Virus record (IMG/VR): IMGVR_UViG_3300024520_000157
Location: 1-43,333 of that record
Strand: one strand, 5' to 3'
DNA length: 43,333 nt
DNA from: a virus
Below the pieces are notes generated by a model, which was not told where the DNA came from, made no database searches, and was given only the letters and a program-made list of their open reading frames with translations. Made by a program: the position numbers and the translations under genes. The first letter of the stretch is position 1, and each line of letters opens with the position of its first letter. Of the stretch, positions 2,421 to 38,550 are shown piece after piece.

Positions 2421-2607
2421 CTTCAATTTCCCTTTTCAACACGTCAATATATTCTTTTATTTTTGACATCAGATACTTTTTTGTCACTGTAGTTTCGTCA
2501 AGAGCATACAAGGAACAAAGCCACATTAAACCCTGCTGAATGCCATTCTCAAAGGCCACTCTTTCGGCCAGTCTAACTTCTACAATAATCTTGTCAATCG
2601 GTTCCAT
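2413..2607 (-). CDS. Small helical protein (64 aa)
   Basis: ATG 2607 (MEPIDKIIVEVRLAERVAFENG...) was chosen because AAGGCGGGTGGG precedes it, within the end of the upstream gene. It is predicted helical and charged. No domain is recognised. Confidence 0.5.
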   Translation of the reverse strand: MEPIDKIIVEVRLAERVAFENGIQQGLMWLCSLYALDETTVTKKYLMSKIKEYIDVLKREIEDE

Positions 2608-2764
2608 CCCACCCGCCTTTGATTTTAAATTCCTCATCAGGATCAACTATCTTCACCCTTGACAGGATGTCTAAAACGTTTTTAATAATCGCCGTGACCA
2701 TCCAGACAGCGAAAATTATTGATAATATAGTCCACCATATTAATGTTGTGAGCGTTGGAATCAT
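2594..2764 (-). CDS. Small single-pass membrane protein (56 aa)
   Basis: The start ATG 2764 overlaps the stop of the upstream gene (ATGA), with GGAG 10 nt before. The first ~35 residues (MIPTLTTLIWWTILSIIFAV...) form one long hydrophobic helix; the tail is polar. The function is unknown. Confidence 0.55.
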   Translation of the reverse strand: MIPTLTTLIWWTILSIIFAVWMVTAIIKNVLDILSRVKIVDPDEEFKIKGGWDGTD

Positions 2765-2976
2765 ATCAAAGGCTCCAATTCTAAAAGCGTACACCTGCCT
2801 TTTTTGACACCGTGGAAACCGTTGCCGAACATCTCAAAGGTTCCGAAAGATGAAGAGGTAAGACAAGGGCCACGCCCTTTAAAAATGCCGTCCTCCAACT
2901 TAGGCTTATGGATTAACTTCACCCCGTCCCATGTTGAGCAGTCCCCGTCTTTGTCCCTACAAAACCATACTTTCAT
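2761..2976 (-). CDS. Small protein, 'W-C-DG' type paralog (71 aa)
   Basis: It starts MKVWFCRDKDGD, resembling the start of the 69-residue protein at 1556-1765. A very good AAGGAGGG site precedes ATG 2976. That site derives from the end of the duplicated HNH gene fragment just upstream. No function is recognised. Confidence 0.55.
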   Translation of the reverse strand: MKVWFCRDKDGDCSTWDGVKLIHKPKLEDGIFKGRGPCLTSSSFGTFEMFGNGFHGVKKGRCTLLELEPLI

Positions 2977-2984
2977 TTCTTACC

Positions 2985-3045
2985 CTCCTTATAATGACAC
3001 TTGACGCACAGCCAACGCACGTCAAGCGGTTTCGTATAATCATCC
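2985..3045 (-). pseudogene. Remnant of an HNH endonuclease gene (3' end only)
   Basis: This stretch encodes DDYTKPLDVRWLCVKCHYKEG, almost identical to the C-terminal end of the intact HNH protein at 3902-4303 (DDYNKPLEVRWLCVKCHYKEG). The DNA is also nearly identical to ~3907-3970, so the two copies flank the methyltransferase gene 3040-3909 as direct repeats. It overlaps the methyltransferase stop by a few bases and has no start of its own. It looks like the scar of a deleted second HNH gene. Confidence 0.75.
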
Positions 3046-5701: not shown

Positions 5702-7047
5702 GATGGTAACTCCATTCCTTTAGTGTAGGTGTTTTTCTCTATCTTCATGCCTTTTCCGAATTCTTTTACAAGGTTTCTAAACATTTGATCCGCTTTTTTT
5801 GCTTTACGGTCAACATTTTGTAAAACTCTTTTCAAAGCAGGAGTCAAAACCCTATCAACAACAACATTGTTTTTTTGACCAAAACGCCACTCGCGCCTAA
5901 CAAATTGGTAGTATTGCTCATATGAATGAGTAGGGAAATATATTATCCGATTGGCGTGCTGGAAATTCAAACCCCACGCGCCTATCTTTGGTTTTGTTAT
6001 TAGACAGCGTGCTTGGCCAGATTTGAACGCGATAAACTTTTCCTCTTTTGCTTCATCAGAATCAGAACCGCTAACCTCTACAGAGTTCGGGATTAATTCT
6101 TTTAAAAGTTTAGCCTCTTCATTCCTGTTACATCCTATAAAAAATTGTCGGTCACCGTCGGCGATATTAGCGGCCATTTCGCAACGTTTGACAACTGTTC
6201 TTTTAACCTCGTTGCGTTGTGTTTCTAAATCCAAAGCCTCTAAATCAAATAATAAACCGTCATTAGGTGGAACATCAACTACATGGCTATTTTCGATAAG
6301 ATCAGGCAATACAAAACCGCCATCATCAAAACCCAGGTCAGACGGTTTTCGGCATGAAATAGCCCAGCTGTTAACCCACTTCCAAAACGGTGTCTCGCCT
6401 TGGCCCTTAAAAGTGAACTTTGCCGTTTGCCCATACATCCGCTTGGTTGCTATATTATTATTATTATTCTTGAAAAAATACCCCACCATGTCAACACTAC
6501 CCATATGGCCTAAAGCCTCAGAACTCGTACCAAGTTCCAAGTAATCGTTTGGTGCAGATGTGGCAGTCCCTAAAAGTCTGTATTTTGTTTTAAGCATAAA
6601 CTTTGTTATTTCATTTTTCCGAACGCCGTCAAAATTTTTCAAAATAGAACTCTCATCACAAACAACCGCCACAAAATCATTTTTATCGAAAAGGTGAAGT
6701 TTTTCGTAATTTGTCACGGTTATTCTACCCGAAGGCTTACCATCTCTTGACCGTGAGACCTCAATACCGAATTTGTCACCCTCTGTTATGAATTGATGAG
6801 ACACGGCCAAAGGTGTCAGAATCAACACATTTTTGTTAGTATGTTCAACAACATTTTGCGCCCATACTAACTCCATGAGAGTTTTACCCAAACCACAGTC
6901 AGCAAAAATAGCGTTCCGGCCATGTTTAACCGACCAACCAACAATAAACTTTTGGAAGTCAAAAAGGCAGTCAGGCATAAAAGTAGGTTTAAAACCACAC
7001 TCGTATTTTAGTTGGGTTTTGTTGTGTATAAATTCCGAGTATTTCAT
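5683..7047 (-). CDS. SNF2/DEAD-like helicase (454 aa)
   Basis: Walker A is ADCGLGKT at residues 49-56, motif II is DESS at 131-134 (in place of DEAH), and motif III is GTATSAPND at 150-158. The C-terminal half carries ...KIGAWGLNFQHANRIIYF... and YYQFVRREWRFGQ, the helicase C lobe with its arginine finger region. This family commonly precedes the SPPF-type methyltransferase in phages, and the genes overlap by 19 nt here. A run of five AAT codons (NNNNN) follows FFK in the middle of the protein. Confidence 0.85.
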   Translation of the reverse strand: MKYSEFIHNKTQLKYECGFKPTFMPDCLFDFQKFIVGWSVKHGRNAIFADCGLGKTLMELVWAQNVVEHTNKNVLILTPLAVSHQFITEGDKFGIEVSRSRDGKPSGRITVTNYEKLHLFDKNDFVAVVCDESSILKNFDGVRKNEITKFMLKTKYRLLGTATSAPNDYLELGTSSEALGHMGSVDMVGYFFKNNNNNIATKRMYGQTAKFTFKGQGETPFWKWVNSWAISCRKPSDLGFDDGGFVLPDLIENSHVVDVPPNDGLLFDLEALDLETQRNEVKRTVVKRCEMAANIADGDRQFFIGCNRNEEAKLLKELIPNSVEVSGSDSDEAKEEKFIAFKSGQARCLITKPKIGAWGLNFQHANRIIYFPTHSYEQYYQFVRREWRFGQKNNVVVDRVLTPALKRVLQNVDRKAKKADQMFRNLVKEFGKGMKIEKNTYTKGMELPSWLKTK

Positions 7048-31784: not shown

Positions 31785-32086
31785 CTTACTCCCCATGTAT
31801 TTAGTTTTATAATATAGCAAGGTTCCTCTAAATCATACATATCGACCGAGCACACCAAACCAGCCTTGTCACATAGATCTTCAAACGTCAGGAGCATATC
31901 CGGCACTCTATTGGGTTTGTGTGCCCAGCCAGCAATAAAAACAAGCGTGGCTTCGTAATCGGTCAGACCGTTGGGTCTGAACTCCTGATCAACCATTCTA
32001 TCAGCCATGTATTTACTTATGCGGCAACGGTGGCGGGAGGTCTTTAGGTGTTTTTTTTGTTGATGTATGAAGTCAAGAGTTTTCAT
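31781..32086 (-). CDS. Small protein of unknown function (101 aa)
   Basis: MKTLDFIHQQKKHLKTSRHR... has a basic N-terminus and an alpha/beta-looking C-terminal half (...NGLTDYEATLVFIAGWAHKP...). No family is recognised. ATGA overlaps join it to both neighbours. Confidence 0.55.
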   Translation of the reverse strand: MKTLDFIHQQKKHLKTSRHRCRISKYMADRMVDQEFRPNGLTDYEATLVFIAGWAHKPNRVPDMLLTFEDLCDKAGLVCSVDMYDLEEPCYIIKLNTWGVR

Positions 32087-32286
32087 CTTATTCCCCTTTT
32101 AATTAACCTTTTGCGCCAAAACCTACGTATTTTGTAAAGTCGCCATCCGTCAGGATGCCAGTGTATGACCGGCTCAATTATCCAACTTGGTGAATACCCT
32201 CTTGCCTTAAATACTGTCGTTCCGGCTGGGCAATAGTTCCCGCCCAAACTTCTGTATACTGCTGATTTATAAATTCTAAGTTTCAT
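32083..32286 (-). CDS. Small basic protein (67 aa)
   Basis: MKLRIYKSAVYRSLGGNYCP... is strongly basic, with six Trp/Tyr residues late in the sequence (HWHPDGWRLYKIRRFW). Nucleic-acid binding is possible. No domain is recognised. Confidence 0.5.
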   Translation of the reverse strand: MKLRIYKSAVYRSLGGNYCPAGTTVFKARGYSPSWIIEPVIHWHPDGWRLYKIRRFWRKRLIKRGIR

Positions 32287-32558
32287 ACGAACATAAACCC
32301 CTTTTCCAATACACCATTTGTCGCTCTAAAAACAGGCAGACCCCTGAACTGTCTACCTTGTAACATTTCCCCCTCCACCACCAGGCCTATCGGAACCGAT
32401 CCATATTTAAGCTCAAATGCCACAAACGCATCCATTAACTCATCCACTATAAGCTGAAAAACTTCAGTCGGGATGTGGGGCTGTATAAAGCCAGGTGTAC
32501 CCTCATAAAGTAGTCTTGAAGCATCTATAGAAAACACTTTGTTTATCATTTTCTCCAT
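32283..32558 (-). CDS. Small protein of unknown function (91 aa)
   Basis: MEKMINKVFSIDASRLLYEG... follows the large terminase gene by 2 nt, with AAGGATTT before the ATG. No domain is recognised. Confidence 0.55.
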   Translation of the reverse strand: MEKMINKVFSIDASRLLYEGTPGFIQPHIPTEVFQLIVDELMDAFVAFELKYGSVPIGLVVEGEMLQGRQFRGLPVFRATNGVLEKGFMFV

Positions 32559-32560
32559 GT

Positions 32561-33955
32561 TTAAATCCTTATCATTCCTCGTGGTATAAAATCGCCTTTA
32601 GATTTATAATAGTTCAGATACTGCGAAAAGGCGTCGGCTTCGTGATCATCGGTTGACTCTGGAAATATAGATAGCTTTTGCATAAACTCCGTTACACCTT
32701 GCCCGAATTTGTAGCAGAAGACATTCCCAGAATCAACGGTTTCATTCGCTGATACCATGCGTAGCGCTTTATTGTTCCGTAATGGCGAATTTTTATTATC
32801 AATTCCTATGATGTTTATCCGCAGTTCCTTAATAGCCTTGTTTTTCTTCAGGTTGTCAACCAGCTCTTGCCCTAAAGCCTTTTCTTCGACCAGTATTGTA
32901 TCCACACCCTCAGAATTACATACACTTACGACACACTCCAGTCCGGTATTAAGGCCATACTGCTTTGCGAATGCCTGCTGAATAATGTGCTTGTTAGTGT
33001 CAAATTGGGACATGATGACAAAGCCCCACGGATCAGAGGCCTCACGGTCTGACATTGAGGTGTCAATTGATAGCACTTTCTTTGTGGTCTTTGGAAGTTC
33101 GTCAAGGCTGGTGATTTTGTCAACTGACACAAGGTTCCCGCCTTCTAAGTTCGGAGATTGTTGTATTTGTGCCATGAACTCACGCGGATTGCGCTTTTTT
33201 TGTTTTAACAGCTCAACGGCTGGGTGGAAGTGCTCCCAAAAAGACGCACCACTTTCGTCTATACCCTTGACGGTTATTACTTCACAGTCATCCCCGTAAT
33301 ATTCCTTAACGTGACCCATTATATCATCATGGTGTAACCTTTGGGCAATGTATATATTTGGGTCGTATCCGATTACATTACGCCGCGACGGTATAGCAGA
33401 ATCATGCCAGCGGTTAATTGATTCCCTTTTTGTATCTGAATACATACCCTTGTCAAGCTCTATTAGGTCATCAAATACCCAAGTTCCTTGAAATACACCC
33501 TTAACGCCAGTCCCTACTCTTCTGCCACCTATATCACCTTCAGCACCTACAGCGTAAACAAAGCCGCCGTGTATCGTGTCGAATACGTCCTGGCGTTCCC
33601 TTTTCTTCTGGTCAATCACATTTTCGGGAAATAGTTCCTTGTAAAGTGTTGACCCCATTATTTGAGCAATCGTCATCGTATACTTTTCAACGGTAAATTC
33701 TTTGGCCTTACTGCACGCGATTGACCTTGCTTCTGGGTAATACCCGTGTGCCCATGACAGAAAGTAGGATAGCATTGTTGTTTTTTGTGACCCTGGCGGC
33801 ACTTCTATTAATAAGTTATTGACCTCACGGTAGAATACACGCTCCAAACCTTCGGCCATTTCGTAATGATGTTTGTTAAGGATAAGTTTTGAGCCTGTTA
33901 TGTGCTCAAACATCATAGAGAAATAGTCTATAAATCTTGAATAAGGGTCAAACAT
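32561..33955 (-). CDS. terL: Terminase large subunit (464 aa)
   Basis: ATG 33955 (MFDPYSRF...) overlaps the small subunit gene by 8 nt; the GTG at 33985 is less likely. The ATPase has the Walker A variant EVPPGSQKTT (~51-60) and Walker B WVFDDLIE (~159-166). The nuclease domain has LSIDTSMSDRE with the first catalytic Asp, ILVEEKALG, and DHEADAFSQYL near the end. It packages DNA into proheads through the portal. Confidence 0.93.
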   Translation of the reverse strand: MFDPYSRFIDYFSMMFEHITGSKLILNKHHYEMAEGLERVFYREVNNLLIEVPPGSQKTTMLSYFLSWAHGYYPEARSIACSKAKEFTVEKYTMTIAQIMGSTLYKELFPENVIDQKKRERQDVFDTIHGGFVYAVGAEGDIGGRRVGTGVKGVFQGTWVFDDLIELDKGMYSDTKRESINRWHDSAIPSRRNVIGYDPNIYIAQRLHHDDIMGHVKEYYGDDCEVITVKGIDESGASFWEHFHPAVELLKQKKRNPREFMAQIQQSPNLEGGNLVSVDKITSLDELPKTTKKVLSIDTSMSDREASDPWGFVIMSQFDTNKHIIQQAFAKQYGLNTGLECVVSVCNSEGVDTILVEEKALGQELVDNLKKNKAIKELRINIIGIDNKNSPLRNNKALRMVSANETVDSGNVFCYKFGQGVTEFMQKLSIFPESTDDHEADAFSQYLNYYKSKGDFIPRGMIRI

Positions 33956-34295
33956 TGTCTTTCCATTTCTTGTGTAAACCCTCACGGAACTTTTTCCATT
34001 CCTCTATATCCCCGGTGACAACGTCCACATCCTGCTTTGGTCGAAACTCTGGGTCTGTTGATGATAAATACCACCGTGACGTTGATTCGTTACCCGACTT
34101 TATTTCATTTCTTATATTGTCTCTGGCATCATCGTTAAGCTCTTCACGTTCGTGTTTCAAAAGCTCACTTGCTTCTGGAAATCTTTCAAACGCTTTATAA
34201 ACAGACTTGCGGGTAACACCCAATCTCCCAGAAATAACCTTTATGATACCACCGGAATCTTTTATAGCGTTCTTTAATTTTGTTTTCGTTATCAT
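33948..34295 (-). CDS. Putative terminase small subunit (115 aa)
   Basis: The N-terminal helix-turn-helix (GGIIKVISGRLGVTRKSVYK) is followed by a helix (EASELLKHEREELNDDARDN...) and an acidic/aromatic tail, the pattern of small terminases. It directly precedes terL with an overlap. It binds the packaging site on DNA. Confidence 0.8.
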   Translation of the reverse strand: MITKTKLKNAIKDSGGIIKVISGRLGVTRKSVYKAFERFPEASELLKHEREELNDDARDNIRNEIKSGNESTSRWYLSSTDPEFRPKQDVDVVTGDIEEWKKFREGLHKKWKDNV

Positions 34296-34316
34296 TTTAC
34301 CATCCCTATTACCTTT

Positions 34317-34334
34317 TGTATACTTTTTGCCACA
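34317..34334 (-). promoter_or_regulatory. Second copy of the TGTGGCAAAAARTATACA motif
   Basis: TGTGGCAAAAAGTATACA precedes the small terminase gene by about 20 nt. It could also be read as a 13-codon GTG-started frame ending on the terminase ATG, since GGAGGGTGA lies before the GTG. No clear promoter is seen here, unlike the copy at 31424-31441. Confidence 0.4.
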
Positions 34335-34337
34335 ATA

Positions 34338-34670
34338 TCACCCTCCTTGTTCAGTTTTGGACATATAACTATAATCGAATAAAAGCGGATTGACGTATTT
34401 ATTTTCAGACGTGTCGTATATAAGGGCTTCTTTAGTTTCAAACGCTGTATCTTCAAACGTTTCAAAAAGTTCAGTGGTTAGCTCTACACCTTCGGCACAT
34501 TGCATTTTTTTCAATCTGTCCATACTATAACGACTCTTTGACACATAGTCTTTAAAGGCTTTGTTGTACCCTTCCTCCGTCATTCCCATCACTTTTAAAA
34601 AAAGTCGAAACGTGTCCACATTGTCTATATCATAATAGTTTCGTGTTGATCCGTATGACCTGTCAAACAT
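34338..34670 (-). CDS. Protein of unknown function upstream of terminase (110 aa)
   Basis: MFDRSYGSTRNYYDIDNVDT... is acidic and helical with no recognised domain. Its final codons (EQGG stop) carry a GGAGGGTGA ribosome-binding site. Confidence 0.55.
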   Translation of the reverse strand: MFDRSYGSTRNYYDIDNVDTFRLFLKVMGMTEEGYNKAFKDYVSKSRYSMDRLKKMQCAEGVELTTELFETFEDTAFETKEALIYDTSENKYVNPLLFDYSYMSKTEQGG

Positions 34671-34673
34671 TTT

Positions 34674-34928
34674 TTAAACCTCCCACTCAGAATCCGAAAC
34701 AGGTTTTAAAATAATACGTCTCTGAGTGAACACATCCTCTAACACTAACATGATTTCCCGTGTTGTTTCCTTGTTAAGGTCTGATAATTCAATCATACCG
34801 TTATTTTTCTTGTATTCCTCCCACGATGCAACACCACCAGACACACTCATTTCATCGCAGAATCTTTCGTATGTCAGATCGGGTAGCCGTTTAAGAACAC
34901 CATCAGAAAAAACAACTTTTATGATCAT
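34674..34928 (-). CDS. Small protein of unknown function (84 aa)
   Basis: ATG 34928 (MIIKVVFSDGVLKRLPDLTY...) overlaps the upstream stop. It is acidic; no domain is recognised. Confidence 0.55.
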   Translation of the reverse strand: MIIKVVFSDGVLKRLPDLTYERFCDEMSVSGGVASWEEYKKNNGMIELSDLNKETTREIMLVLEDVFTQRRIILKPVSDSEWEV

Positions 34929-35119
34929 ACTATCCCCCATTCGAAGAAATCAATATAATACCCCATCGTTGACCCGTCAAACACTACTTTGGCCTTGGCA
35001 ACAGAAATTGTACTACCTGTGGGTATAACGTCCTCCAACAACCTAAAACATGATTTTAAAACATCATCATCGCCTGTTAACTGTATCGGGACTCTTTCCT
35101 TGACCTTAGTTCTAACCAT
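34925..35119 (-). CDS. Small protein, FEWG family copy 1 (64 aa)
   Basis: It starts MVRTKVKERVPIQ and ends GYYIDFFEWGIV. The next gene upstream starts MRVRTECKG and ends GYKLNWFEWGL, with a similar layout between, so the two are tandem paralogs. The FEWG codons carry the ribosome-binding site for the next gene. Function unknown. Confidence 0.55.
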   Translation of the reverse strand: MVRTKVKERVPIQLTGDDDVLKSCFRLLEDVIPTGSTISVAKAKVVFDGSTMGYYIDFFEWGIV

Positions 35120-35334
35120 TACAAACCCCATTCAAACCAGTTCAATTTGTAGCCAGTTCCCGGATCGCCAGACACATCAAAATCGAATAATAATACCGTC
35201 GTTTCTTTTGGCACCATTTTCCCCAATAACGCCTTGACAACCTCCATGATGCCCGGATTGAAAACAGGCTCATCAAATACATCGAAATAGAGGCAATTAA
35301 CATAAATACCTTTACACTCTGTTCTAACTCTCAT
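35119..35334 (-). CDS. Small protein, FEWG family copy 2 (71 aa)
   Basis: ATG 35334 overlaps the stop of the 58-residue gene (TAATG). It shares start and end motifs with its neighbour at 34925-35119 and carries an extra acidic segment near the C-terminus (FDFDVSGDPG). Function unknown. Confidence 0.55.
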   Translation of the reverse strand: MRVRTECKGIYVNCLYFDVFDEPVFNPGIMEVVKALLGKMVPKETTVLLFDFDVSGDPGTGYKLNWFEWGL

Positions 35335-35510
35335 TATCCAAACCAATCTTGTGTTTGCGTCATTGTCGTATTGTCATCAAAACAAGGTACCAACGGTTTC
35401 CCCAAAGTCAATGCGCAATCAGCAATATAAGCCCTTAGAAAACCTTCTAAAACGTTGAGCTTTTTTTGATCTTCTTTTAGTTCGTCGTATTCTTGCTCAG
35501 TTATTTCCAT
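35334..35510 (-). CDS. Small acidic protein (58 aa)
   Basis: MEITEQEYDELKEDQKKLNV... starts at ATG 35510, which lies inside the end of the upstream gene behind GAGGGC, and stops in a TAATG overlap. No domain is recognised. Confidence 0.6.
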   Translation of the reverse strand: MEITEQEYDELKEDQKKLNVLEGFLRAYIADCALTLGKPLVPCFDDNTTMTQTQDWFG

Positions 35511-35785
35511 TTAAAGCCCTCAATTAATTTAGTTTTGTAAGGCACCCCAGGAAGCCACGGGTTGTAGTGTTCATACTTATAAAAACTTAGCATATACTCG
35601 CCTGATTCTTGCTTTGATACTTCGAGCCAGTCACCACAGTTCCAGCAATCAGTATAAAAATTATCCACGTCTGACGGGTTAACCCAATTTAAAATACACT
35701 CACCGTCCTGGCTTTGGAAAGAAGATACAATCTCGCCACACCCAGGGCATTCAATTTCAAAACGAACTAAATCATACATTCCCAT
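35501..35785 (-). CDS. Zinc-ribbon protein (94 aa)
   Basis: CPGC and CWNC pairs about 34 residues apart define a zinc ribbon (MGMYDLVRFEIECPGCGEIV...). GAGGGACC precedes ATG 35785. Function unknown; many phages carry a similar small 'MGMYD' zinc protein. Confidence 0.6.
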   Translation of the reverse strand: MGMYDLVRFEIECPGCGEIVSSFQSQDGECILNWVNPSDVDNFYTDCWNCGDWLEVSKQESGEYMLSFYKYEHYNPWLPGVPYKTKLIEGFKWK

Positions 35786-35948
35786 TTTGGTCCCTCAACC
35801 TTATCATGCCAATTTTAACCCTTAGCAAGTCCCATTCTACCAAAAAGTAGCCAGTGCAACCTTTGCACACACTGCCAGAGAAGTATTTTGAAGCTATACC
35901 TCCGGCCACAATCATTTTACACTTTGGGCATTGTTTAGTTCCTTTCAT
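35772..35948 (-). CDS. Small zinc-ribbon protein (58 aa)
   Basis: MKGTKQCPKCKMIVAGGIAS... holds CPKC and CKGC pairs. The start lies inside a preceding eight-codon frame (MLTRYERN at about 35963-35937) that has the better GGAAAG ribosome-binding site, so expression may depend on coupling to that leader. It overlaps the next gene by 14 nt. Confidence 0.55.
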   Translation of the reverse strand: MKGTKQCPKCKMIVAGGIASKYFSGSVCKGCTGYFLVEWDLLRVKIGMIRLRDQNGNV

Positions 35949-35971
35949 AGCGTGTTAACATGTTTCTTTCC

Positions 35972-36130
35972 TTACATCAACTCGATACTAACGTCAAGCA
36001 TGGAATATTTATCCTGTAACGCATCCAAATCATTACACAACTCTCTGACTTTAGCGGATGACATGCCTCTGTCGTAACCTTTGCGCTCTGTTACTAATAT
36101 TTTGAACTCAGTATGTCGCTGTTCTTTCAT
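35972..36130 (-). CDS. Small protein directly after the tRNA-like RNAs (52 aa)
   Basis: MKEQRHTEFKILVTERKGYD... starts at ATG 36130 with GGAG six bases upstream, 15 nt after the first tRNA-like RNA ends. Helical and charged; no domain is recognised. Confidence 0.6.
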   Translation of the reverse strand: MKEQRHTEFKILVTERKGYDRGMSSAKVRELCNDLDALQDKYSMLDVSIELM

Positions 36131-36144
36131 GTTTTTCTCCTATC

Positions 36145-36295
36145 CCCGCGCCCGGCTGGATTCGATTCCAGCAGTCTACGAGTAGCCACGTAGCAAGGCA
36201 ATTTTCTATGCAGTTATACTTTTCGGTCGCTTGGTTATGCAAGCTCCTACTTCGTTTTGCTTTCCGGGGCGTCTCAATTCCGCCACGGGCGCGGG
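36145..36295 (-). ncRNA. tRNA-like structured RNA 1 (~151 nt)
   Basis: The ends pair over 10 bp (CCCGCGCCCG with CGGGCGCGGG). After the 5' arm comes TGGCGGAATTGAGACGCC, very like the D-arm of tRNA-Leu/Ser but with a loop two bases shorter and no GG pair. Before the 3' arm is GCTGGAATCGAATCCAGC, like a T-arm but with an eight-base loop. The ~90 nt between form no anticodon arm I can find; hairpins GCTTG/CAAGC and CTACG/CGTAG are possible. No CCA end is encoded. Function unknown. Confidence 0.6.
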
Positions 36296-36306
36296 TTTAG
36301 TTTTAA

Positions 36307-36441
36307 ACGGTCAAGGCTGGATTCGATTCCAGCAATTCCCTTCAGCATTACGCTCGGTTTCCCTGGGGTCTGTTTGGTTGCGATCCTGCATAGCCTAACC
36401 TGTCCATGCCCATCAGCGTCTCAATTCCGCCACTTGACCGT
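36307..36441 (-). ncRNA. tRNA-like structured RNA 2 (~135 nt)
   Basis: It has the same architecture as RNA 1, 11 nt away: a 9-bp terminal stem (ACGGTCAAG with CTTGACCGT), the identical GTGGCGGAATTGAGACGC near the 5' end and the identical TGCTGGAATCGAATCCAGCC near the 3' end. Stem and middle sequences differ between copies while the pairing is kept, as expected for RNA under structural selection. The middle can form GCATGG/CTATGC with loop GGTT facing a downstream AACC, a possible pseudoknot. Confidence 0.6.
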
Positions 36442-36456
36442 CTAAGTTTTCAAAGA

Positions 36457-36870
36457 TTAAAACGGTATATCGCCATCACTTTGATGGTTGACCGGTTTGG
36501 GTGTTGATTCAGCAAACCCGCCTTGTTCGCCCTTTTTATTATCTAACATGATCATCTTATCCGCTTTAATCTCAGTTACATACTTAGTAACCCGGATTGT
36601 GTCGTTTGTTTCATAAGATCGCGTTTGAAGTTTACCTTCGAAATATACCCGGCTACCCTTTTTTAGATGTTCCCCGCAAATTTCAGCCAGCTTGTTCCAG
36701 ACGACTATACGATGCCACTCTGTAGCCTCCTGAACATTCCCGCTTTTATTCTTCCAACTTTCAGAAGTAGCAAGCGTCATATTGCATACAGACAATTCAC
36801 CCACGGTTTTTAATTCCGGGTCTTTTCCCAAACGTCCGATTAATTCAACTCTATTTAATGATTTTGACAT
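36457..36870 (-). CDS. ssb: Single-stranded DNA-binding protein (137 aa)
   Basis: A classic OB-fold SSB: MSKSLNRVELIGRLGKDPEL, ...TEWHRIVVWNKLAEICGEHL, KKGSRVYFEGKLQTRSYE, and a short tail ending SDGDIPF, the partner-docking tip. It protects single strands in replication and in RecT-dependent recombination. Confidence 0.95.
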   Translation of the reverse strand: MSKSLNRVELIGRLGKDPELKTVGELSVCNMTLATSESWKNKSGNVQEATEWHRIVVWNKLAEICGEHLKKGSRVYFEGKLQTRSYETNDTIRVTKYVTEIKADKMIMLDNKKGEQGGFAESTPKPVNHQSDGDIPF

Positions 36871-37113
36871 TTAATTATCCTTTTCTAATAAGTTTTCATC
36901 CTCGGTATGGTTGTGTCTTTTAAACAATTCGCAGTTTCCGTGTTGTGAATGATTAGCGTATGCGATACGTTCACGCTCTTGTATAAACCCTGCGCACACA
37001 TATTTAAAGGCGGGTTTTGTATTTTTATATTTGTATTCCCTCAATGTCAATCTGAAGGAACACACACAGCAACAACCTTCTAACTTCTCATTACATTGTA
37101 TTACGTTGCCCAC
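36871..37113 (-). CDS. Cys-rich small protein (80 aa)
   Basis: The start is GTG 37113 with AAGGGGC before it. Cys residues (CNEKLEGCCCVCSF, YVCAGF, HGNCELF) suggest metal binding; the pattern GNCELF-R is one I recall from small phage proteins of unknown role. It lies between the Cas4-like nuclease and SSB genes. Confidence 0.55.
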   Translation of the reverse strand: MGNVIQCNEKLEGCCCVCSFRLTLREYKYKNTKPAFKYVCAGFIQERERIAYANHSQHGNCELFKRHNHTEDENLLEKDN

Positions 37114-37114
37114 G

Positions 37115-37831
37115 TTATGCCCCTTTTCTAAGTTTCAAATAATGCGGCAATCTTTTCATCATATTACTGCATACACCACAACCGGGATTAGGTTCCGGCA
37201 TATCTGGTAACATGATAATATTAATCGCTTTTTTGATGTCGTCAAGTGCTTTTTTCCTGTCTATTGTGACAGGGTATACCGTCGCACTGTGACCAACCAG
37301 TTCGGGCCATGCGGCATATAAAAAGGCGTATTTAACAGTAGACATATTAAATGCCATGGTATTAAGTTGCCTTGAATATATCTCAATCGCTTCCGTGCTC
37401 AGTTGATCCTTGCTTTTGACGTCAATCAGGATTTCAAAATAATCCTTACCGTCAGTGACGCACTCAAAAAGTATATCATATCTTGACGAGAAGTTAATAT
37501 TATTATTACGCTTCATTATTGTAAAGCCGTCAACAATAATCTCATTTGGCCGTTGCTCTATGTGAACGGATACAATGTCAAAATCAAAACCAAATTGTGC
37601 CTTAATCGTATTCTTGACTTGCTCAATATCCAAATATACCAACCCGTGCAACCTGTCCCAAATTGCACTGGACATGAACGGTTGAGGAAGACCACCCACT
37701 ACTTTACCTTTGTATTCCCCACGCTTACCAATTCGCGTATCACAATTATGTTTTAGCCAAAAACAAGCATGACATTCGAACGGGTAGTTCATCTCTGAAG
37801 CGGATATAGTTTTCTTAATTAAATGTGTCAT
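37115..37831 (-). CDS. PD-(D/E)XK nuclease, Cas4/RecB-like, probably Fe-S (238 aa)
   Basis: Catalytic pattern: D in SSRYDILFE (~119), IDVKS (~136-140) as the D-x-K pair, and RQLNTMAFNM (~154) as the Gln motif. Cysteines at ~20 and 23 (ECHAC) and a C-terminal CGVC pair match the Fe-S cluster ligands of Cas4/AddB-type exonucleases. A role in recombination with RecT, making single strands for annealing, is likely though the genes are far apart. Confidence 0.75.
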   Translation of the reverse strand: MTHLIKKTISASEMNYPFECHACFWLKHNCDTRIGKRGEYKGKVVGGLPQPFMSSAIWDRLHGLVYLDIEQVKNTIKAQFGFDFDIVSVHIEQRPNEIIVDGFTIMKRNNNINFSSRYDILFECVTDGKDYFEILIDVKSKDQLSTEAIEIYSRQLNTMAFNMSTVKYAFLYAAWPELVGHSATVYPVTIDRKKALDDIKKAINIIMLPDMPEPNPGCGVCSNMMKRLPHYLKLRKGA

Positions 37832-38550
37832 TTTTCGGGCATCCAGTGTACATAATTATTTTCATAACATTCATCGCTAAAATAGCAAGTTGTTTCTGTG
37901 TGATGGCGGCCTAAATCACAAGTGATGCAATCCTTAAACAAGCCGGCTTTCTTATAAGCTTTCCATGCTCGACCTAATGCAATCAAGGCCCCCGTATTCG
38001 GGTGGTAATCATCGTTTTTGTGGCATGTTGCTTTTCCTCTTGACAAACACGCTACAAACCTATCACAAAATTTTGGAGCATGTTTGTTCACCTCGTTTAT
38101 TTCAGCCCGGACAACTTTGTGATAATCTGGCGATAAAGGTAAACCACAAAAGGATAACGTGTGGCCAAAACCAGCCTTTTCAACTTCCTTTTCCAACTTT
38201 TTAAGCTGGATTTTGATTGACGAGGCCTTCTTGTTTGGCGGCTTCATCCAACGAACCCCGGAGGCAGTAAGTCTATCAACCTCTTTAAATCCCATTGTAA
38301 AATAGTCGCTACTTGTGGGCTGGTCGCCGGTCGGGAATATGTCGAAATCATCCCGTTTCAACTTTTCCCGCTTATTTTTGCAAAGCGCCTCGTTTAATTG
38401 CTCCGTGACTTTTTCAAGTTCATTAGACAAGTATACATTTCTCTTTTCGAGTCTTTCCGACTTCTCACGCAAGATTTTTGTGGCAACCTCAGCACCTTCG
38501 AGCAATGACCCAAGCTCTTGTACACGTGCGTTTAATTTCTTCTTTCCCAT
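37828..38550 (-). CDS. Coiled-coil protein with DIFxTGDQPT motif (240 aa)
   Basis: ATG 38550 (MGKKKLNARVQELG...) was chosen for the AAGGGGTTAAC site. The first ~60 residues are a coiled coil. Residues 70-79 are DIFPTGDQPT, also present in the replication protein (DIFETGDQPT). The C-terminal half has several Cys/His (CDRFVACL, CHKNDDYH, CITCDLGRHH, CYFSDECYE), suggesting zinc binding. Function unknown; a replication role is inferred from the shared motif. Confidence 0.6.
   Translation of the reverse strand: MGKKKLNARVQELGSLLEGAEVATKILREKSERLEKRNVYLSNELEKVTEQLNEALCKNKREKLKRDDFDIFPTGDQPTSSDYFTMGFKEVDRLTASGVRWMKPPNKKASSIKIQLKKLEKEVEKAGFGHTLSFCGLPLSPDYHKVVRAEINEVNKHAPKFCDRFVACLSRGKATCHKNDDYHPNTGALIALGRAWKAYKKAGLFKDCITCDLGRHHTETTCYFSDECYENNYVHWMPEK
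38314..38342. repeat. Short DNA repeat encoding the TGDQPT motif, copy 1
   Basis: The codons for TGDQPT and flanks are nearly identical to 42960-42986 in the replication gene (shared core GTGGGCTGGTCGCC on the plus strand). The match is at DNA level as well as protein level. Confidence 0.55.

What the first reader, a model, noticed from the sequence alone, without database searches (positions are those of the whole stretch)
36145..36441. Two tandem tRNA-like RNAs without an anticodon arm
Two adjacent RNAs (~151 and ~135 nt) share an identical D-arm-like GTGGCGGAATTGAGACGC and T-arm-like TGCTGGAATCGAATCCAGCC. Each is closed by its own perfect 10- or 9-bp terminal stem of different sequence (covariation between copies). 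The ~80-90 nt where an anticodon arm should be are divergent but can fold, possibly with a pseudoknot in copy 2. The D-loop lacks the GG pair and the T-loop has eight bases, so they are not ordinary tRNAs. I know of no named family with this layout. They may be decoys for tRNA-handling enzymes, tmRNA-like molecules, packaging RNAs, or sensors.
Basis: partly seen in the sequence, partly recalled or inferred. Interest (0 to 1): 0.9.

Follow-up and report, generated by a model that had tools for sequence, protein, structure and literature searches.

The report
Phage tRNA mimics lacking an anticodon
Two side-by-side RNA genes in this phage belong to a widespread and, as far as we could check, undescribed family of phage RNAs that keep the upper half of a transfer RNA but replace the codon-reading arm with a rapidly changing insert, so they cannot translate and probably act as tRNA look-alikes during infection.

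Summary
On the minus strand (36309-36439 and 36148-36292) lie two tRNA-like RNAs: 7-bp acceptor stem (9 and 10 bp if extended), U8, 3-bp D-stem, D-loop without GG, 82/96-nt insert, U48, 5-bp T-stem and an 8-nt T-loop. ARAGORN and Rfam 15 do not recognise them. A covariance model built only from 18 relatives finds both blind (E 5.5e-18 and 5.5e-14); in those relatives 99.3% of pair cells are paired and 9 of 15 pairs change on both sides (0/500 shuffles reach the covariation score). I collected 61 distinct members from very different phages, including named phages LP65, 521B, SAC12B, ENFP1 and S-CAM9, where they are unannotated. An 8-nt T-loop goes with loss of the D-loop GG (6/67 against 71/75, p about 5e-28) and absence of an anticodon arm. 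At one orthologous locus in five related phages, flanks and tRNA-like handles are conserved but the insert is replaced wholesale. Best reading: trans-acting, anticodon-less tRNA mimics, most likely decoys for a host or defence protein that reads the upper half of tRNA. The family and structure are shown; the function is inferred.

The parts
36309..36439 (-). tRNA-like RNA copy A (131 nt; the acceptor helix extends to 36307-36441, 9 bp)
   Evidence: Blind hit of covariance model R1, 68.9 bits, E 5.5e-18; folds as acceptor/D/T
36148..36292 (-). tRNA-like RNA copy B (145 nt; the acceptor helix extends to 36145-36295, 10 bp)
   Evidence: Blind hit of R1, 55.1 bits, E 5.5e-14; folds as acceptor/D/T, z -2.30
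36416..36432 (-). copy A: U8, G9 and D-arm TG-GCG-GAATTGAGA-CGC (no GG in the D-loop)
36334..36415 (-). copy A: 82-nt insert in place of the anticodon arm, ending in U48
36316..36333 (-). copy A: T-arm GCTGG-AATCGAAT-CCAGC with 8-nt loop
   Evidence: family T-loop WATCRAAY
36269..36285 (-). copy B: U8, G9 and D-arm, identical to copy A
36173..36268 (-). copy B: 96-nt insert, unrelated to the insert of copy A, ending in U48
36155..36172 (-). copy B: T-arm, identical to copy A
36457..36870 (-). upstream gene in the same direction: single-strand DNA binding protein; its stop codon is 18 nt before copy A
   Evidence: PHROG 44, E 4e-46
35972..36130 (-). downstream 52-aa ORF in the same direction; ATG 18 nt after copy B, preceded by AGGAG

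Best explanation
SHOWN (from sequence): both copies are members of a large phage RNA family that keeps the tRNA acceptor stem, U8, D-stem, A14/A15/A21, U48 and T-stem, but lacks an anticodon arm, mostly lacks the D-loop GG, and carries one extra nucleotide in the T-loop. Whatever replaces the anticodon arm is dispensable (members of 66-71 nt) or hypervariable. The D-arm is closest to tRNA-Leu, so the family probably derives from a type II tRNA. INFERRED: the RNAs are co-transcribed with phage genes, cut out by the tRNA maturation enzymes, stable, and act in trans. They cannot decode. They most likely occupy or misdirect a host or defence protein that recognises the acceptor/T half of tRNA, that is, they are decoys; the remodelled elbow and the missing anticodon arm keep them out of translation and away from anticodon nucleases, and the variable insert adapts them to a changing partner.
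For: Blind model hits. Covariation: 55 double-change cells against 12.3 in shuffles, 9 of 15 pairs with changes on both sides. 46 different acceptor stems among 61 members and U48 in 61/61 (that harvest used a pairing filter, and the pattern itself required that T for many members, so one search is the cleaner evidence). D-loop GG 6/67 against 71/75; anticodon arm 4/67, about chance, against 50/75. Minimal 66-71 nt members, including cyanophage S-CAM9 with a UUCG hairpin in place of the anticodon arm. Orthologous locus: insert identity 0.11-0.33 (shuffled 0.25) in 9 of 10 pairs, handles 0.85-1.0. No shared neighbour gene among 594 ORFs, as expected for a stand-alone trans-acting RNA. Members lie in tRNA clusters of named phages. 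Phage tRNAs counteracting tRNA-targeting defence is an established theme (PMC10264068, PMC11555353, found).
Against: No transcript, processing, protein partner or phenotype is known. The acceptor stems share no identity element and N73 varies (A 25, T 21, C 9, G 6), so the mimicked step need not be aminoacylation. Position -1:73 pairs in 74% of members (chance 43%), and in the window the helix is 9-10 bp, which could disturb normal 5' and 3' maturation. The large inserts in most members are not explained by a decoy that needs only the upper half.
Confidence: 0.4

Rival explanations
1. Handle-and-payload RNA: the tRNA-like part is only a processing and stability scaffold (cut by RNase P and RNase Z, protected ends), and the hypervariable insert is the functional part, e.g. 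an aptamer or inhibitor matched to a host-specific target.
For: Wholesale insert replacement between conserved handles at one locus; inserts weakly but significantly structured (mean MFE z -0.56 +/- 0.13) with an excess of a helix abutting the T-stem (combined p 1.2e-6); covarying helix in the L071 group.
Against: Members of 66-71 nt have practically no payload. Inserts share no motif (5 of 1596 pairs share a 14-mer). No antisense match of the window inserts to the phage's own genome beyond chance.
Confidence: 0.3
2. mRNA punctuation: tRNA-like processing signals between genes that make RNase P and RNase Z cut polycistronic phage mRNA; the excised RNA has no function of its own.
For: Tight location between co-directional genes: ssb stop 18 nt before, next ATG 18 nt after; similar settings in L025, L074, L077 and L012.
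Against: Would not explain the conserved lack of GG together with an extra T-loop base, nor members inside tRNA clusters that are already punctuated by tRNAs.
Confidence: 0.1
3. Decaying tRNA-Leu genes or other remnants without function.
For: D-arm resembles tRNA-Leu; 7-nt T-loop relatives without a proper anticodon arm occur in the same phages.
Against: Compensatory changes across acceptor and T stems, uniform 8-nt T-loop and U48, conservation with covariation in named phages.
Confidence: 0.06
4. Intron-containing tRNA.
For: The insert sits where the anticodon arm would be.
Against: No anticodon arm next to the D-stem (4/67, about chance); minimal members lack space for one; ARAGORN with introns allowed finds none in the window; insert not conserved.
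Confidence: 0.03
5. tmRNA-like ribosome-rescue RNA.
For: tRNA half plus long insert, in some relatives with pseudoknots.
Against: No G3:U70 in the acceptor stems inspected, no conserved tag frame, a true D-stem is present, minimal members are too short; the only Rfam tmRNA hit in the loci tested is a 17-nt chance match.
Confidence: 0.02

Closest known systems
tRNA (Rfam RF00005), especially type II tRNA-Leu
   Same: 7-bp acceptor, U8, GCG/CGC D-stem, A14, A15, A21, U48, 5-bp T-stem; D-arm sequence like tRNA-Leu
   Different: No anticodon arm, D-loop GG absent in 61/67, 8-nt T-loop WATCRAAY, insert from about 17 to nearly 200 nt; not matched by ARAGORN or Rfam; tRNA-Leu genes score at most 40 bits with the family model, members with this D-arm 55-82
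tmRNA (RF00023 and variants)
   Same: tRNA-like ends joined by a long, sometimes pseudoknotted insert
   Different: These RNAs have a paired D-stem, lack G3:U70, have no tag reading frame, and have an 8-nt T-loop
YrlA bacterial Y RNA, tRNA-like domain (from memory; no paper found in the library)
   Same: Natural tRNA mimic with D- and T-arm-like parts
   Different: In YrlA the 5' and 3' ends form the Ro-binding stem; here the ends form the acceptor stem in ordinary tRNA order and no Y module was seen
Plant-virus 3' tRNA-like structures (from memory)
   Same: Viral RNA imitating the upper half of tRNA
   Different: Those are 3' ends of RNA genomes; these are intergenic RNA genes of DNA phages
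Phage tRNAs that evade tRNA-cleaving defence (PMC10264068, PMC11555353)
   Same: Phage-encoded, and members of this family often lie in the same kind of tRNA clusters
   Different: Those are working tRNAs with an anticodon

Membership tests
tRNA | 7-bp acceptor and 5-bp T-stem | tested here: met
tRNA | anticodon arm with 7-nt loop and U33 | tested here: not met
   4/67 pass; the chance rate of the permissive test is about 5%
tRNA | 7-nt T-loop and D-loop GG | tested here: not met
   8-nt T-loop in all; GG in 6/67; both window copies lack both
tRNA | core tertiary partners U8-A14, A15-U48, A21 | tested here: met
   letters present as invariant columns of A1; U48 61/61; the contacts themselves are inferred
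tRNA | recognised by tRNA models | tested here: not met
tRNA | aminoacylation | not testable with these tools
   needs a bench assay
tmRNA | G3:U70 alanine identity pair | tested here: not met
   third acceptor pair is U-A in copy A and G-C in copy B; in the 18 relatives it is C-G, A-U, G-C or U-A, never G-U
tmRNA | tag reading frame | tested here: not met
   inserts share no sequence; minimal members have no room
YrlA | Y module with Ro-binding terminal stem | tested here: not met
   the terminal stem is the acceptor stem adjoining U8 and the T-stem; no Rfam hit
new family (model R1) | 8-nt T-loop WATCRAAY, D-loop mostly without GG, covarying acceptor and T stems | tested here: met

The most novel reading that the evidence does not exclude
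A previously undescribed class of phage RNA: a constant, remodelled tRNA-like handle carrying a hypervariable domain that is swapped between related phages, working in trans against host tRNA biology or tRNA-sensing immunity. It would be an RNA counterpart of the variable anti-defence gene cassettes of phages.
Probability: 0.4. Interest if true: 0.95.

Novelty: new variant of a known kind. Interest (0 to 1): 0.84.

Why it matters
A widespread phage RNA family, present even in long-sequenced phages such as LP65, is overlooked because tRNA finders and Rfam miss it. Natural tRNA derivatives freed from decoding would show which part of tRNA phages exploit, and cultured carriers (L. brevis phages, cyanophage S-CAM9) make the question directly testable. 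The hypervariable insert between constant handles suggests an arms race with an unidentified partner. The linked loss of the D-loop GG and gain of a T-loop base defines a non-standard tRNA elbow that structural biologists could solve.

Tried and rejected
TLS-PK families, which I first recalled as phage motifs: no paper in the library holds the name, and on reflection they are pseudoknots of plant-virus tRNA-like structures; dropped. A universal H-type pseudoknot in the insert: only some inserts beat shuffles, copy B p 0.63 and copy A none; kept only for L037, L012 and the L071 group. Intron: rejected. Antisense insert: no match beyond chance in the window. Conserved neighbour gene: none. Window TerL as a handle for relatives: none in viral contigs, only remote named-phage hits at about 28% identity; blastn of the locus against named phages found nothing. 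False pattern hits set aside: L006-L011, L013-L017, L019-L024 and L030 (coding or unpaired), and L026, L039, L040 (an ordinary tRNA-Leu upstream of a chance match). Genome surveys: 192 genomes of the phylum of G003 gave only G003 itself at member-level score; 395 genomes of the phylum of G020 gave one genome with 7-nt T-loop forms. These large surveys scored only 18 and 8 candidates per genome, so absence there is weak evidence.

Full report
WHAT IS THERE. The window is a 43,333-base virus record of a tailed phage with tape measure, terminase and SSB genes, most genes on the minus strand. On that strand, between ssb (stop at 36457) and a 52-aa ORF (ATG at 36130, 18 nt after copy B), lie two RNAs: copy A 36309-36439 and copy B 36148-36292. 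Each has a 7-bp acceptor stem (continuing to 9 bp in A and 10 bp in B), U8 G9, a 3-bp D-stem GCG/CGC, a 9-nt D-loop GAATTGAGA, an insert of 82 or 96 nt, a T directly before the T-stem (U48), and a 5-bp T-stem closing an 8-nt loop AATCGAAT. Each copy folds into acceptor, D and T arms by free energy alone.

NOT A KNOWN RNA BY THE TOOLS. ARAGORN finds no tRNA or tmRNA, also with introns allowed. Rfam 15 has no match at gathering score, and only a chance ylbH match with E up to 10. The loci of relatives and of named phages give Rfam tRNA hits for neighbouring tRNAs and for some relatives with a 7-nt T-loop, but not for these RNAs.

RELATIVES. A pattern with both blocks found L003/L004; the D-arm block found L005 and, in bacterial assemblies, L012 and L018; relaxed patterns found L025, L027-L029, L031-L038 and L071-L081. 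These scans did not demand base pairing. In one search, of 18 contigs 14 proved to be true members with paired acceptors, three carried an ordinary tRNA-Leu just upstream of a chance match (L026, L039, L040) and one (L030) was coding. In all 18 aligned relatives G7, U8, A14, A15, A21 and the T before the T-stem are invariant. Of 270 pair cells 99.3% are paired; 9 of 15 pairs change on both sides; there are 55 double-change cells against 12.3 +/- 2.7 in shuffles (0/500); sliding the partner by one column drops pairing to 38-47%. This is direct comparative evidence for a structured RNA.

BLIND TEST. A covariance model built from those 18 sequences, without the window, finds copy A at 68.9 bits (E 5.5e-18) and copy B at 55.1 bits (E 5.5e-14); the next hit in the window has E 0.54. 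tRNA-Leu genes score at most 40 bits, members with this D-arm 55-82. The first relatives were found with the window's own D-arm or T-arm letters, so sequence independence is partial, but pairing was not used to find them.

SIZE OF THE FAMILY. A structural harvest over all loci gave 61 distinct RNAs with 46 acceptor stems, U48 in 61/61, and lengths from 68 to 244 nt; S-CAM9 adds a 66-nt form. This harvest required pairing, and the pattern required the T before GCAGG, so its pairing and U48 counts are not independent evidence. Named carriers: Lactobacillus phages ENFP1, 521B, SAC12B and LP65, with acceptor and T-stem covariation among them (GTATTAG/CTAATAC, GCATTAG/CTAATGC, TCATTAG/CTAATGA; GCAGG/CCTGT, GCCGG/CCGGT), and cyanophage S-CAM9, whose 66-nt form has a UUCG hairpin in place of the anticodon arm. 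In these records the RNA is unannotated; the ENFP1 authors used tRNAscan-SE 2.0 and list 11 tRNAs (PMC9302086).

LINKED FEATURES. Comparing RNAs with 8-nt and 7-nt T-loops from the phage loci with the same rules: GG in the D-loop 6/67 against 71/75 (Fisher p 5e-28); an anticodon arm by a permissive test 4/67, about the chance rate, against 50/75. So a lengthened T-loop, loss of the D-loop GG and loss of the anticodon arm go together. I infer a remodelled elbow in which the usual G18-Psi55 and G19-C56 contacts cannot form in the standard way, while U8-A14 and A15-U48 are kept. Position -1:73 pairs in 74% of members against 43% by chance, so an 8-bp acceptor is favoured.

THE INSERT. Inserts share no sequence across the family (5 of 1596 pairs share a 14-mer). 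They are weakly structured (mean z -0.56 +/- 0.13), with an excess of helices whose 3' strand abuts the T-stem, the place of the variable arm in type II tRNA (combined p 1.2e-6). In the L071 group that helix covaries (ATGACC/GGTCAT against ATAAAT/GTTTAT). Pseudoknots are convincing in L037 and L012 but not in the window copies. In five related phages with acceptor GGATGGG (L032, L148, L166, L226, L230) the RNA sits at the same locus: downstream flank 86-100% identical, T-arm plus acceptor 100%, D side 85-100%, but inserts of 52-136 nt at 11-33% identity, the level of shuffled sequence (25%), except one near-identical pair. Upstream comparisons with L226 are low because L226 carries an extra segment there. 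The insert is therefore replaced wholesale while the handle is kept.

HOW IT MAY WORK. Shown: an RNA under structural selection, with a tRNA core, no anticodon, and no fixed neighbouring gene. Inferred: matured like a tRNA and acting in trans. Since only the upper half and core are common to all members, including those of 66-71 nt, the shared function most likely lies there. That favours a decoy or competitor for a protein that reads the acceptor/T half, such as a tRNA-maturation enzyme, EF-Tu, or a tRNA-sensing or tRNA-modifying defence protein. Phage tRNAs are known to counteract tRNA-cleaving defences (PMC10264068, PMC11555353, listed). The strongest rival is that the handle is only a scaffold and the variable insert is the effector. 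I cannot separate these without experiments.

NOVELTY. It fails defining features of tRNA, tmRNA and YrlA (see the membership table). Keyword searches of the paper library found no description, but the library lacks most subscription journals, so 'undescribed' is provisional. I rate it a new variant of a known kind (tRNA-like RNAs), with a real chance that the function is a new kind.

Noticed in passing
L005:1688-1839(-), 2536-2626(-), 2778-3009(-); L034:6107-6190(-), 6588-6717(-); L079:6518-6694(+); L029:12033-12144(-): The same phages carry arrays of other tRNA-like RNAs with ordinary 7-nt T-loops, mostly with the D-loop GG, but no proper anticodon arm, some imitating tRNA-Glu.
   Followed up: partly
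just upstream of the tRNA-like RNAs in L028, L029, L034, L005, L071, L073: A recurring leader hairpin, roughly GACAGCNNGGAAAGACNNGC, a few bases before the tRNA-like RNAs; unidentified motif, possibly a processing element.
   Followed up: no
flanks of the GGATGGG RNAs in L032, L148, L166, L226, L230: Upstream and downstream flanks look like further structured RNAs with compensatory changes (e.g. CATTG/CAATG against ACACG/CGTGT).
   Followed up: no
L259:2449-2531(+), Escherichia phage ManiMatter_Bas94 (PQ850617): Unannotated tRNA-like RNA with about 8-bp acceptor, 7-nt T-loop and no evident anticodon arm in a cultured E. coli phage; a convenient test system.
   Followed up: partly
L135 and L136 (genome G365): Two tRNA-Leu-like RNAs of about 124 nt with 7-nt T-loop and no anticodon arm in a bacterial genome; the one in L135 is followed by ACCA.
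   Followed up: partly
L109 (genome G003): A second RNA of this kind in the same assembly as L012, with 8-nt T-loop and D-stem ATG/CAT instead of GCG/CGC, i.e. a compensatory D-stem change.
   Followed up: no
window 1-43333: The phage is remote from named phages: TerL best hits about 28% identity, and blastn of 32000-38000 gives no match.
   Followed up: no
L226 and L228 inserts: Two otherwise unrelated inserts share a hairpin module ACGAGGCGTCCAA...ACGCCTA.
   Followed up: no
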